Assembly: GCA_958295785.1 (NCBI GenBank)
Contig: OY282377.1
Location: 2,432,394-2,496,393, forward strand
Origin: an uncultured Latescibacterota bacterium
GTDB lineage: Bacteria > Latescibacterota > UBA2968
DNA: 64,000 nt
Direction of reading: 5' to 3'
Shown here: positions 6,009-61,556 of the stretch, one piece after another
How positions within the stretch are numbered: the stretch's first letter is position 1
Layout: each line of letters starts with the position of its first letter
Program-made: the position numbers and the translations under genes
Notes under the pieces: generated by a model
The model's database searches: none
What the model saw: only the letters and a program-made list of their open reading frames with translations
What the model was told of the DNA's origin: nothing

Positions 6009-6120
6009 GAGTCCCTAACAGAAAGCGTTGCCATGGCTTTGTGAGAGGCCGCCTTTGAGGCGTCCCTGCGGGTGTTCACTCCTCTGTTTCAGACGCTTGA
6101 TTTCTTTCTGTTAGGGCTTC
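6009..6120 (+). mobile_element. 112-bp MITE, copy 1
   Basis: It starts GAGTCCCTAACA and ends TGTTAGGGCTTC (with one base variant), i.e. the two ends of the IS5-type elements at 6377 and 16451 joined after internal deletion. Flanks are TTA on the left and TAA on the right. Internal sequence carries GTGAGAGGCCGCC and CAGACGCTTGATTTC. No coding capacity; it would depend on transposase supplied by a full element. Confidence 0.88.
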
Positions 6121-6172
6121 TAAGAGGAGGACGCCATGACCCATTGCTCGTATTCCATGCGCTAGGACAAAA

Positions 6173-6376
6173 GACGATAGACTATCGCTTTCAACAAAAT
6201 TTTTGGAGCAGACAGAGCGATTGTCGGGATGGCTTCCTTCTACCCTATAGGAAAAAAACGACCGAAAAATCGAAAATATACAGACTTTACTGCTTTTTTT
6301 TTCTGACAGGCCCCTCCCGATCCTGCCCGTCAGAAAATCCAAATCTCAATGAATATAACATCTACCATGCTATTTA
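6173..6376 (+). repeat. Dispersed repeat family B, copy 1
   Basis: About 200 bp starting with the palindromic CGATAGACTATCG and containing ATACAGACTTTACTGC and GCCCGTCAGAAAATCC. It recurs at 16245-16450 and 21567-21799. Here and at 16245 it is followed directly by an IS5-type element at the same base position, so element and repeat appear to travel together. Confidence 0.75.
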
Positions 6377-7298
6377 GAGTCCCTAACAAAAAGCGTTGCC
6401 ATGGATTTGTGAGAGGCCGCTTTTCTTCTCAGCCCAACCCTTACAACGTCCATGCCCGGCATCTGCAACCGGGCGAGGAGGGACAAATGACCAACCCCCT
6501 CGTGAGCGATGCACTCTGGGAAAAGGGGCCCCCCTTTTGCCGGTTCCCAAGCCTGGACGGTTCCGCTTTCCCGGCCGTAAGCGCATTGACGACCGCTAGG
6601 CATTGACCGGCATTCTATTCGTCCTGAAGAGCGGCATCCCATGGGATCAGTTGCCCCAAGAGATGGGGTGGGGTTCCGGGATGACCTGCTGGCGTCGTCT
6701 GAAGGCATGGCATGACGCCGGCGTGTGGGAGCGGCTTCATCATCTGCTGTTGTCCAAACTGCGAGCGGCCGACGGCCTGGCCGGGTCTCGTGCCTGCGTG
6801 GACAGCGCCTGCGTGCGGTAGGCACTGGGGGGAAAACCCGGCCCCAATCCCACAGACCGCCGCAAGCCCGGGCGTAAGCATCATGGGATCACCGATGCCA
6901 ACGGGCTGCCTCTGGCCGTGATTGTGCCCGGGGCGAACCGGCCAGATGTGACGCAATTGTTGCCCTTGGTGGACGCTGTGCCTGCGGTCAGGGGCAAACG
7001 CGGTCGTCCGCGTCGCAGACCCCAACGGCTGTATGCGGACCGTGCCTATGACTCGGAGGCGTGCCGGAAGGTGCTGCGTGCGCGCCACATCTGGCCGGTG
7101 ATCGCCCGGCGGGGTACAGCGCATGGCAGCGGGTTGGGCGTGTACCGGTGGGTCGTTGAGCGGACGCTGGCCTGGCTCCTGCAGTTCCGCAACCTGCGGG
7201 TGCGCGACGAACGCAGAGCGGACATCCATGAGGCGTTCCTCTCCATCGGCTGTTCACGCATCTGTTTCAGACGCTTGATTTCTTTATGTTAGGGCTTC
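6377..7298 (+). mobile_element. IS5-family insertion sequence, copy 1 (inactive)
   Basis: A 922-bp element. Left end GAGTCCCTAACAAAAAGCG, right end complement GAAGCCCTAACATAAAG, flanked by TTA (6374-6376 and 7299-7301). The interior encodes a DDE transposase closely matching the copies at 16451 and 35342. Short T-N-A target duplications fit IS427/IS1031-like groups of the IS5 family. Confidence 0.88.
6487..7292 (+). pseudogene. IS5-family transposase, frameshifted and carrying a nonsense codon
   Basis: The reading frame starts at ATG 6487 after GGCGAGGAGGG and encodes MTNPLVSDALWEK, the DUF4096-type N-terminus. A one-base deletion in a G/C run near 6519-6535 shifts the frame, a TAG follows at the DDR*ALTG position, and a further deletion near 6815 disturbs the DDE part. 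The C-terminal third (AYDSEACRK to WVVERTLAWLLQFRNLRVR) remains readable in pieces. It cannot make a functional transposase. Confidence 0.85.
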
Positions 7299-16132: not shown

Positions 16133-16244
16133 GAGTCCCTAACAGAAAGCGTTGCCATGGATTTGTGAGCGGCCGCCTTTGAGGCGTACCTGCGGGTGTT
16201 CACTCCTCTGTTTCAGACGCTTGATTTCTTTATGTTAGGGCTTC
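16133..16244 (+). mobile_element. 112-bp MITE, copy 2
   Basis: Same ends and interior as copy 1 (GAGTCCCTAACAGAAAGCG... GTTAGGGCTTC). The left flank is TTA but the right end is fused directly to repeat B (GGCGATAGACTATCG) with no target duplication, so a rearrangement followed insertion. Confidence 0.88.
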
Positions 16245-16450
16245 GGCGATAGACTATCGCTTTCACAAAATTTTCAAATTTTTCAGAACAGACACATTCC
16301 CCGCCGGTTTTCGCTTCCCTCTATTAACTAGTAAAAAAACAAGCAAATTTTCAAAAATATACAGACTTTACTGCTTTTTTTTCTGACAGGCCGATCATGC
16401 CCGTCAGAAAATCCAAATCTCAATGAATCTGACATCTACCATGATATTTA
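16245..16450 (+). repeat. Dispersed repeat family B, copy 2
   Basis: Palindromic GCGATAGACTATCGC start, ATACAGACTTTACTGC, GCCCGTCAGAAAATCC and ATCTACCATGATATTTA immediately before the IS. Matches 6173-6376. Confidence 0.75.
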
Positions 16451-17375
16451 GAGTCCCTAACAAAAAGCGTTGCCATGGATTTGTGAGAGGCCGATTTTCT
16501 TCTCAGCCCAACCCTTACAACGTCCATGCCCGGCATCTTTATCAAGCGAGGAGGGACAAATGTCCAACCCCCTCGTGAGCGATGCACTCTGGGAAAAGGT
16601 CCAACCCCTTTTGCCGGTTCCCAAGCCTGGACGGTTCCGCTTTCCCGGCCGTAAGCGCATTGACGACCGCTAGGCATTGACCGGCATGCTATTCGTCCTG
16701 AAGAGCGGCATCCCATGGGATCAGTTGCCCCAAGAGATGGGGTGGGGTTCCGGGATGACCTGCTGGCGTCGTCTGAAGGCATGGCATGAAGCAGGCGTGT
16801 GGGAGCGGCTTCATCATCTGCTGTTGTCCAAACTGCGCGAGGCCGACAGCCTGGACGGGTCTCGCGCCTGCGTGGACAGCGCCTGCCTGCGTGCGGTAGG
16901 CACTGGGGGAAAACCCGGCCCCAATCCCACAGACCGCCGCAAGCCCGGGCGTAAGCATCATGGGATCACCGATGCCAACGGGCTGCCTCTGGCCGCGATT
17001 GTGACCGGGGCGAACCGGCCAGATGTGACGCAATGGTTGCCATGGGTGGACGCCGTGCCTGCGGTCAGAGGCAAACGCGGTCATCCGCGTCGCAGACCCC
17101 AACGGCTGTATGCGGCGCGTGCCTATGACTCGAAGGCGTGCCGGAAGGCGCTGCGTGCGCGCCACATCTGGCCGGTGATCGCCCGACGGGGTACAGCGCA
17201 TGGCAGCGGGTTGGGCGTGTACCGGTGGGTCGTTGAGCGGACGCTGGCCTGGCTCCTGCAGTTCCGCAGCCTGCGGGTGCGCGACGAACGCAGAGCGGAC
17301 ATCCATGAGGCGTTCCTCTCTATCGGCTGTTCACTCATCTGTTTCAGACGCTTGATTTCTTTATGTTAGGGCTTC
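16451..17375 (+). mobile_element. IS5-family insertion sequence, copy 2
   Basis: A 925-bp element with the same ends as copy 1. Left flank TTA, right flank TAA. It interrupts an inverted fragment of the other IS type at 17376, at the bases that read GGTTTTAGAC in the intact copy at 11709. Confidence 0.9.
16560..17369 (+). pseudogene. IS5-family transposase with one amber codon
   Basis: ATG 16560 follows GCGAGGAGGG. The frame is intact for 270 codons except TAG at 16671-16673, where copy 3 has AAG (Lys) in RKRIDDRKALTG. The rest is complete: DUF4096-like N-terminus (LWEKVQPLLPVP), the first DDE Asp in CVDSACLRAVG, GITDANGLPLA, a second Asp in YAARAYDSKACRK and the Glu in YRWVVERTLAWL. Reversion or suppression of one codon would restore it. 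Copy 1 has the same TAG. Confidence 0.85.
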
Positions 17376-59321: not shown

Positions 59322-59541
59322 GGCATCATCAACCTCGAAACAAATCGCTTTCCCGTCAAGTTGTGATCAATACGGATAGCGTCCTCAAAACTTGCGCTAC
59401 ATCTCCCTTGCCCCCGCTATCATTACTGGATATATTTTTGTATCTGCCCCGCGGTAGATAGGGCTAAAAACAGAAGTATGGGCGGTCGAGAAACACTATG
59501 AGAGCCGCAATTTATTTCTCAACTGATGGAGAGAGCGAACG

Positions 59542-60135
59542 ATGTTACCCGAGAGACAAACTATCTCACCTATCCCGCCAATGGCATCCCTTGTCGATGA
59601 ATCTGGCCTCGCACGCAAAAACGCTGGCAAGTTGAGAGCATTTGCATCCCAAGAGCAGGCACCCGTTGTCTTCGCATCACACCAGATTTCCGAAACGATA
59701 CCATCGCCAACGCCGAACTCCTCTCAATCGCTTGCCGTAGCTGTGGATACATTAGTCGGTGTCGTTGAGGCGAATGGCGGTCAGCCCTTAGCCTCCGGCG
59801 ATTATCAGCGGCTTGTCGCGGCCAAGGACAAGTTAAACGAGATAATTGTTGGTGAGGAGGAAAATCACCGCGTAAAAATTGATTGGAATTATGTGCGTGA
59901 CGTTGTTGAGAAAGCCGCTTCTGAGTTAAATTGGGATGTTGAAATATCGGTTGATACCGCCGAAAACCACATTATAGTAGGTATGCCAAAAGACGAAGAC
60001 CAAGAGGACATGATAATAGAGACGACCTTTGATTTTTATTCATTGATTGCCAGACAATTGGATAAAGAGATATTCAAGGCGATTAACTTTTTCTTTTTTT
60101 CAGATTTTGACGAACAGGATTTTAGATTATTATGA
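59542..60135 (+). CDS. Unknown protein, first gene of a three-gene operon
   Basis: 197 residues from ATG 59542 (after GGAGAGAGCG). The first 65 residues are low-complexity and probably disordered; the rest is an alpha-beta domain (KIDWNYVRDVVEKAASELNW, DVEISVDTAENHIIVGMP) with an acidic end. Its last codon overlaps the ATG of the HEPN-like gene (ATGA), implying translational coupling and joint function. No family recognised. Lower GC than flanking housekeeping genes, consistent with acquired DNA. Confidence 0.65.
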   Translation: MLPERQTISPIPPMASLVDESGLARKNAGKLRAFASQEQAPVVFASHQISETIPSPTPNSSQSLAVAVDTLVGVVEANGGQPLASGDYQRLVAAKDKLNEIIVGEEENHRVKIDWNYVRDVVEKAASELNWDVEISVDTAENHIIVGMPKDEDQEDMIIETTFDFYSLIARQLDKEIFKAINFFFFSDFDEQDFRLL

Positions 60136-60672
60136 GTTTTGATCCCGCACTATTCGCCAGCGTTGGGCACTCACTAACACGACAAGGTCGTCTTGACAAA
60201 GAAGCCCGCACGAGGACTGCCATTGGGCGAGCGTATTACGCGCTTTTCTTGGCGATAAGAACTGCCATACGGACGCAAGAAGGCAGAGCGATCCATGGGC
60301 GAAATGATCGAATCGACCACGGAAAACTAAGGGATGTCTTGGCTTCAGCAAATGATCCTGACTTAGAGTCCCTAACAAAAAGGGTTGACCTGGATTTGTG
60401 AGAGGCCGACTTTGAGGCGTTCCTGCGGGTGTTCACTCATCTGTTTCAGACGCTCAATTTCTTTATGTTAGGGCTTCTTAAACAGTTTGGCAAAAACTCT
60501 CAGCGATCTCTATGAAGCACGTCGCCAAGCAGATTACGTGCTTCAACCCATTGGGGGTTGGGCAAAATATTGTGAAAGCCCCAGAAGAGCCGATAGGCTC
60601 TTAAAAATTGTTGAGGCAGCGATCAGAAAATTGCCGACTATAGATTTCACTGAAGTGATGGGAAAAATTTGA
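60132..60672 (+). pseudogene. HEPN-like protein gene split by MITE copy 7
   Basis: Codons 60132-60365 encode MSFDPALFASVGHSLTRQGR... RAYYALFLAIRTAIRTQEG... VLASANDPDL, and 60481-60672 encode NSLAKTLSDLYEARRQADYV... MGKI. Removing the MITE and one TTA repeat gives one uninterrupted 141-residue frame. The family is likely HEPN/UPF0332-like: GRAYYALFLAIRTAI then LYEARRQADY, the RxxxxxxADY helix typical of HEPN. HEPN proteins are often RNases in toxin-antitoxin or defence loci. As it stands the product ends inside the MITE (TKRVDLDL). Confidence 0.75.
60366..60477 (+). mobile_element. 112-bp MITE, copy 7
   Basis: GAGTCCCTAACAAAAAGGG at the left, GTTAGGGCTTC at the right, perfect TTA duplication (60363-60365, 60478-60480). 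Inserted in the HEPN-like gene. Confidence 0.93.
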
Positions 60673-61449
60673 ATGACTACTGATAAAGCTGAAAAAATTG
60701 AAGAAATGGTCGAGAAGTGGCGTTCCATCGCGAATATCGCGGAAGGAATGGATAACGCACTCGCTGCCCATGCTTGGTTTTTCGTTGGCAATCTCCTTGC
60801 AAAAAGTGATCGGCAAGAAGAAGCACATTCCGCTTATGACCAAGCACTTTGTCTCAAGCCAGATCAGGCGGTTATGTACAACAACCGAGGATCTGCAAAA
60901 TCCCTGATGGGACAACTCGAATCTGCAATGTCTGACTATGATGAGGCTATTCGTCTCGAGCCAGATTATGCAGACGCCTATTACAACCGGGGATGGATAA
61001 AGAGCGAACTGAATCAATGCGAATCTGCCATTGCCGACTATGACGAGGCTATCCGTCTCGAGCCAGATTATGCAGATGCCTATTACAACCGCGGAATTGC
61101 AAAGGGCAAATTGAATCAATGCGAATCTGCCATTGCCGACTATGACAAAGCAATACAGCTAAATCCCGATTATACAGATGCATACTACAATCGCGGCGGC
61201 GCAAAGAACGAATTGGGTCGATACGAGGCGGCCATCGCCGATTATGACGAAGCACTCCTCCTAAAACCCAATTTCGCCGAAGCCTACACCAACCGAGGCA
61301 TTGCAAAACAACTGTTGGGTCGATACGAGGCAGCCATCGCCGATTATGACGAGGCGATACGACTGAAGCCAAAAGATGCCCGTTCCTGTGCCAACCGAAA
61401 AATTGCGAAGGAGCAATTGGGCCAATGCGAGGCTGAGATAGCCGATTAG
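60673..61449 (+). CDS. Tetratricopeptide repeat protein
   Basis: 258 residues; ATG 60673 directly follows the TGA of the HEPN-like gene. From about residue 35 to the end there are six to seven 34-residue TPR units of the type [20 protein letters not shown], with near-identical DNA in units 3 and 4. TPR arrays bind partner proteins. The last unit is cut: after AEIAD a TAG appears, and in the next frame [16 protein letters not shown] (61451-61498) continues the TPR pattern, so a small deletion shortened the array. Confidence 0.82.
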
Positions 61450-61556
61450 CCACACGCCTAAATCCAAATTATGCAAACTCGCACCTGCGCGGCGGGCAAT
61501 CCTCCGCGCACTTTATTCTTTCGCCACGATCATCAATCAGGCAAAAGGAGCCTGTT

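What the first reader, a model, noticed from the sequence alone, without database searches (positions are those of the whole stretch)
60132..60672. MITE insertion in a HEPN-like gene; removal restores a 141-codon frame
The MITE (60366-60477) plus one TTA is 115 bp, which breaks the frame; deleting it joins VLASANDPDL to NSLAKTLSDLYEARRQADYV in frame with no stop. Insertion must be recent because both halves are undecayed. A disrupted RNase-type toxin beside intact partners could be tolerated or selected.
Basis: partly seen in the sequence, partly recalled or inferred. Interest (0 to 1): 0.75.

Follow-up and report, generated by a model that had tools for sequence, protein, structure and literature searches.

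The report
Jumping element breaks a HEPN gene
A 112-base parasitic DNA element, one of dozens in this genome, has recently landed inside a small accessory gene of a suspected RNA-cutting defence protein and cut it in two; a related species carries the same gene unbroken, so this is a real but ordinary gene knock-out.

Summary
A 112-bp MITE (60366-60477) flanked by TTA target duplications interrupts a small gene starting at 60132. A same-genus genome (Latescibacterota MAG, L033/G006) carries the uninterrupted 141-codon gene; the two window flanks align to it back to back and overlap only at the target TTA, so it is a natural empty site. Eleven further relatives span the junction in one frame. 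The MITE is an internally deleted IS5-family element, abundant in this genome and not found in ten congeners. This copy has no private mutation, so the insertion is recent.

"HEPN-like" holds: the congener protein passes Pfam PF05168, and the nearest solved structures are HEPN proteins. The canonical Rx4-6H motif is absent at its usual place. The family's invariant Y35Y36, H63 and R92 align with required residues (Y41Y42, H64, R122) of the type IX retron-Kva2 HEPN RNase, and the MITE separates H63 from R92. RNase activity here is inferred, not shown.

"Beside intact partners" is half right: the upstream partner is intact, but the downstream TPR gene appears frameshifted near its 3' end. Nothing suggests selection. 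Overall: a well-documented but ordinary MITE knock-out of an accessory, probably defence-linked gene.

The parts
59542..60135 (+). Upstream partner gene, 197 aa, overlapping the HEPN start by 4 bp (ATGA). Its C-terminal ~85 aa are conserved upstream of the HEPN gene in the congener; its N-terminal part differs
   Evidence: no confident family
60132..60401 (+). Truncated HEPN reading frame: 78 native codons plus 11 MITE-encoded codons, then TGA. Holds RAYYALF and the invariant H63
60363..60365 (.). Left target-site duplication, TTA
60366..60477 (+). MITE, 112 bp, with imperfect 12-bp terminal inverted repeats; internally deleted derivative of an IS5-family insertion sequence
60478..60480 (.). 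Right target-site duplication, TTA
60481..60672 (+). Severed C-terminal half of the HEPN gene (63 codons + TGA), no internal stop; holds R92 and D96-Y97
60673..61449 (+). Downstream TPR-repeat gene, directly abutting; TPR-like sequence (ATRLNPNYA) continues in another frame after the stop, so the 3' end looks frameshifted
16451..17375 (+). Related full-length IS5-family element (925 bp) whose ends match the MITE ends; 230-aa DDE transposase ORF behind a 67-aa ORF
6377..7298 (+). Second full-length copy of the same IS (922 bp), transposase ORF more broken up

Best explanation
A 112-bp MITE, mobilised in trans by the IS5-family transposase of its ~925-bp parent element, recently inserted at a TTA site inside a small horizontally variable HEPN gene and inactivated it. 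Shown: element, TSD, parent IS, natural empty site in a congener, family membership. The truncated product keeps only 78 of 141 native residues and is separated from the half holding R92 and D96-Y97. Inferred: mobilisation in trans; and that the intact protein is a dimeric metal-independent RNase effector of a defence or toxin-antitoxin type module, using a non-canonical active site (H63 with R92, YY for substrate) like the type IX retron HEPN. Because the element separates the two putative catalytic residues into different reading frames, the locus is most likely a null allele of an accessory gene, tolerated rather than adaptive.
For: MITE, TSD and copy number. Parent IS5-family transposase. 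Neither MITE nor IS found in 10 congeners, including a complete one. This copy equals the shared state of its three-member subfamily, with no private change. Natural uninterrupted 141-codon gene in congener G006. Family spanning the junction. PF05168 24.4 bits against cut-off 22; 7 of 10 family members match it. PDB relatives 9xbd, 9xbc, retron-Kva2 HEPN and AF0298. Predicted helical fold, top fold matches HEPN. Invariant H63, R92 and YY align with Kva2 H64, R122 and Y41-42, whose mutation abolishes defence (PMC13405049). Both halves still show excess synonymous change, dN/dS about 0.22 and 0.38.
Against: No experiment shows that this HEPN cleaves RNA or is toxic. The AlphaFold model is moderate (mean pLDDT 76) and Foldseek E-values are weak (best 0.09). 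Only one close homologue (79% and ~63% identity of the halves) gives the empty site. Read-level data were not available, so a mixed population (empty site in some cells) cannot be excluded. The congener MAGs are mostly fragmented, which can hide repeats, though G008 is a single contig.
Confidence: 0.88

Rival explanations
1. The insertion is adaptive: it disarmed a costly HEPN toxin after acquisition, possibly as a reversible switch through precise excision.
For: The gene is probably an effector, the coding halves are undecayed, and the upstream partner is intact.
Against: Dozens of copies of the same young element litter the genome, so chance suffices. No evidence of excision. The downstream TPR gene also looks damaged, as expected for a dispensable island.
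Confidence: 0.1
2. The truncated 89-residue protein (N-terminal half plus 11 MITE-encoded residues) is a new functional short protein, for example a dominant-negative partner.
For: The frame is open with its own start overlapping the partner gene.
Against: It lacks R92, D96-Y97 and the last helices of the domain; the insertion is too young to show conservation; no such short form was seen in relatives.
Confidence: 0.04
3. There was never one gene: the two halves are separate reading frames and the MITE lies between genes.
For: Both halves are open frames in the window.
Against: The congener and 11 other relatives encode both halves in one frame.
Confidence: 0.01
4. The HEPN gene was already non-functional as an RNase (HEPN lacking Rx4-6H), so the insertion destroyed a binding or regulatory protein, not a toxin.
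For: No canonical motif at the usual place; some HEPN families are non-catalytic (PMC3710099).
Against: H63, R92 and YY are invariant in the family and equal the required residues of an active non-canonical HEPN.
Confidence: 0.25

Closest known systems
HEPN-T clade (PF05168; AF0298, PDB 2hsb)
   Same: Helical domain, RAYYA-like motif, D in place of the canonical H, conserved H elsewhere N-terminal to the motif; best fold match
   Different: The window copy is broken by a MITE; partner gene is not an MNT nucleotidyltransferase
Type IX retron HEPN effector (retron-Kva2, PDB 36ht; PADLOC HEPN_IX)
   Same: YY, H and R active-site residues align one to one with the invariant residues of this family
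   Different: No reverse transcriptase, winged-helix protein or msDNA gene seen beside it in the window island
IS5-family elements with MITE derivatives (NCBIfam NF033580)
   Same: DDE transposase with two ORFs, ~925 bp, short target duplication, MITE sharing the IS ends
   Different: No match found in ten congeners; lineage-specific expansion
HEPN-MNT (HepT-MntA) toxin-antitoxin
   Same: Small HEPN gene coupled to an adjacent small gene
   Different: No MNT domain found; no canonical Rx4-6H

Membership tests
MITE of an IS5-family element | Short, no transposase, terminal inverted repeats, target duplication, many copies | tested here: met
   112 bp, TIR 10/12, TTA duplication, >=41 copies; 18 of 30 copies show an exact 3-bp TTA/TAA duplication
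MITE of an IS5-family element | Ends shared with a transposase-bearing relative in the same genome | tested here: met
   Left 48 bp and right 78 bp align to ~925-bp IS; transposase NF033580 187.7 bits against cut-off 110
HEPN superfamily (PF05168) | Profile match above the curated cut-off | tested here: met
   Intact congener protein 24.4 bits against 22; the window halves alone give no Pfam match
HEPN superfamily (PF05168) | Helical-bundle fold | tested here: met
   Five predicted helices, top fold matches HEPN (2hsb, prob 1.00, but E 0.09)
Canonical catalytic HEPN RNase | Rx4-6H in the C-terminal helix region | tested here: not met
   R92..ADY without H; a formal R57-x5-H63 occurs, but R57 is not conserved in the family
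Non-canonical HEPN RNase (retron-Kva2 type) | Distant H and R plus YY at the active site | tested here: met
   H63, R92, Y35-36 invariant and aligned with H64, R122, Y41-42 (PMC13405049); the R122 stretch of the alignment is weak on its own
Non-canonical HEPN RNase (retron-Kva2 type) | RNase activity | not testable with these tools
   needs a bench assay
Type IX retron | Reverse transcriptase, winged-helix gene and ncRNA in the operon | tested here: not met
   The island has three genes: partner, HEPN and TPR; its neighbours are a lipoprotein gene and aroC. No dedicated RT or ncRNA search was run
HEPN-MNT toxin-antitoxin | MNT nucleotidyltransferase partner | tested here: not met
   Partner P0003 has no MNT match

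The most novel reading that the evidence does not exclude
The pair (a partner with an exchangeable N-terminal part and a conserved ~85-aa C-terminal domain, overlapping a small HEPN with a non-canonical H...R site) is an undescribed defence or toxin-antitoxin module of Latescibacterota that travels in defence islands, and this genome caught it freshly disarmed by a MITE.
Probability: 0.3. Interest if true: 0.45.

Novelty: new member of a known kind. Interest (0 to 1): 0.27.

Why it matters
It is a clean example of a miniature transposon recently knocking out an accessory gene in a little-studied phylum, with a natural empty site for comparison. It also shows that a HEPN without Rx4-6H should not be dismissed as inactive: this family keeps the distant H...R pair used by the type IX retron effector. 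The intact congener pair, beside AbiC/AbiP-like and Olokun-like genes, is the better target for functional work.

Tried and rejected
Searching each half against Pfam and NCBIfam gave nothing; the intact congener protein was needed. A single-sequence PDB search gave nothing useful; the family profile did. No plasmid homologue at E<=1e-5. No paper holds both the MITE term and 'Latescibacter'. The promoter scan gave no forward promoter-like site inside the MITE; one weak reverse-strand match overlaps its right end. DNA folding of the MITE is not unusually stable (z -1.5). The PADLOC Csn2 match of the partner (16.8 bits) and its NHL match (below cut-off) were rejected as chance. Two congener searches with other MITE-abutting genes were used only as a baseline.

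Full report
Observation. The window shows a 112-bp element at 60366-60477 with imperfect terminal inverted repeats and a TTA on each side. Its first 24 bases recur nine times in the window with none expected by chance, and at least 41 copies of 95% or more identity are found in the 5.66-Mb single-contig genome (only 40 of 239 first-look candidates were scored). A scan for the terminal sequence found 180 ends, counting both MITE and IS ends, against none for the reversed control pattern. Of 30 copies read, 18 carry an exact 3-bp TTA or TAA duplication.

Origin of the element. Full-length relatives lie in the window at 6377-7298 and 16451-17375: the MITE's left ~48 bp and right ~78 bp align to their ends. 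The second carries a 67-aa ORF followed by a 230-aa ORF with a DDE transposase domain (PF01609) that passes the NCBIfam IS5-family cut-off. So the MITE is an internally deleted IS5-family derivative that depends on such a transposase (inference). About 40 IS copies or more exist in this genome. Neither the IS nor the MITE was found in ten same-genus genomes. Most of those are fragmented MAGs, in which repeats can be lost, but G008 is one contig.

The interrupted gene. A congener (G006, JAJEHL010000047.1, 'Candidatus Latescibacterota') has an uninterrupted 141-codon gene at L033:1274-1699. The window's flanks align to it at 77% (together with the upstream gene) and 75% DNA identity, ending and restarting at the same TTA: a natural empty site. 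The halves are 79% and about 63% identical in protein. Eleven further relatives (L034-L040, L047, L048, L049, L051) encode the region on both sides of the junction in one frame.

Age. Neither half has a stop. dN/dS against the congener is about 0.22 (N-half) and 0.38 (C-half), which mostly reflects time before the insertion. The MITE copy shares four diagnostic changes with two other copies and has no private one, while each of those two has one. Together with absence from congeners this supports a recent insertion.

What the protein is. The congener protein passes Pfam HEPN PF05168 (24.4 bits, cut-off 22), and seven of the ten aligned family members match that family at E<=0.1. A family profile finds HEPN proteins 9xbd and 9xbc, retron-Kva2 HEPN and AF0298 in the PDB. 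A moderate-confidence model (pLDDT 76) has five helices, and its best fold match is AF0298 (2hsb), followed mostly by other HEPN domains (E-values are weak). The canonical Rx4-6H is missing at its place. An R57-x5-H63 string exists, but R57 is not conserved. Anantharaman et al. (PMC3710099) describe HEPN-T proteins with D for H and a conserved H further N-terminal. In retron-Kva2 (PMC13405049) distant H64 and R122 form the active site with Y40-42, and their mutation abolishes defence. The HMMER alignment puts family H63 on H64 and R92 on R122 (the R122 stretch is individually weak, 1.8 bits), and both are invariant in the ten family members. The MITE, between codons 78 and 79, separates H63 from R92.

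Surroundings. The gene overlaps the 197-aa upstream gene by 4 bp and abuts a TPR gene. The upstream gene's C-terminal ~85 aa are conserved upstream of the congener HEPN, but its N-terminal part is not; two other congeners have the same C-terminal domain on yet another N-terminal part. The island lies between a lipoprotein gene and aroC. In the eight congeners where the slot could be read, it holds a ~320-aa gene that looks like a beta-lactamase-type serine hydrolase (named from its sequence features, not by a family search). In G006 the pair sits elsewhere, between an AbiC/AbiP-like gene and OloA/OloB-like genes. This fits mobile defence cargo (inference). The TPR gene's repeat pattern continues in another frame after its stop, so 'intact partners' is only partly right; a sequencing error is possible.

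Verdict. The mechanism (MITE knock-out) is ordinary. The RNase-effector role is plausible through a non-canonical site, not demonstrated. There is no evidence for selection.

Noticed in passing
L010, L015, L019 (G000), MITE boundaries: Several MITE copies sit exactly on a stop codon. In three paralogues ending ...ALDAEA the element begins at the TAG/TAA; congener homologues of the L010 gene match it to its last residues, so a TTA/TAA target can spare genes by landing on stops.
   Followed up: partly
window 61432-61520: TPR-like sequence (ATRLNPNYA) continues in another frame just after the stop of the TPR gene, suggesting a small frameshifting change or a sequencing error.
   Followed up: partly
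window 59361-61546: The slot between a lipoprotein gene and aroC holds the HEPN island here but a ~320-aa serine-hydrolase-like gene in eight congeners.
   Followed up: partly
L033:157-5488: In the congener the HEPN pair is flanked by an AbiC/AbiP-like gene (PF16872) and OloA/OloB-like genes: a probable defence island.
   Followed up: partly
L042:1519-1968 and L044:1501-1950 (minus strand): The partner's conserved C-terminal domain occurs on a different, antitoxin-like N-terminal part in two congeners, without the HEPN gene in the stretch read.
   Followed up: no
window 6009-7298 and 16133-17375: A MITE lies 200-260 bp before a full-length IS in the same orientation here and at several other genome places, suggesting compound duplications.
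   Followed up: no
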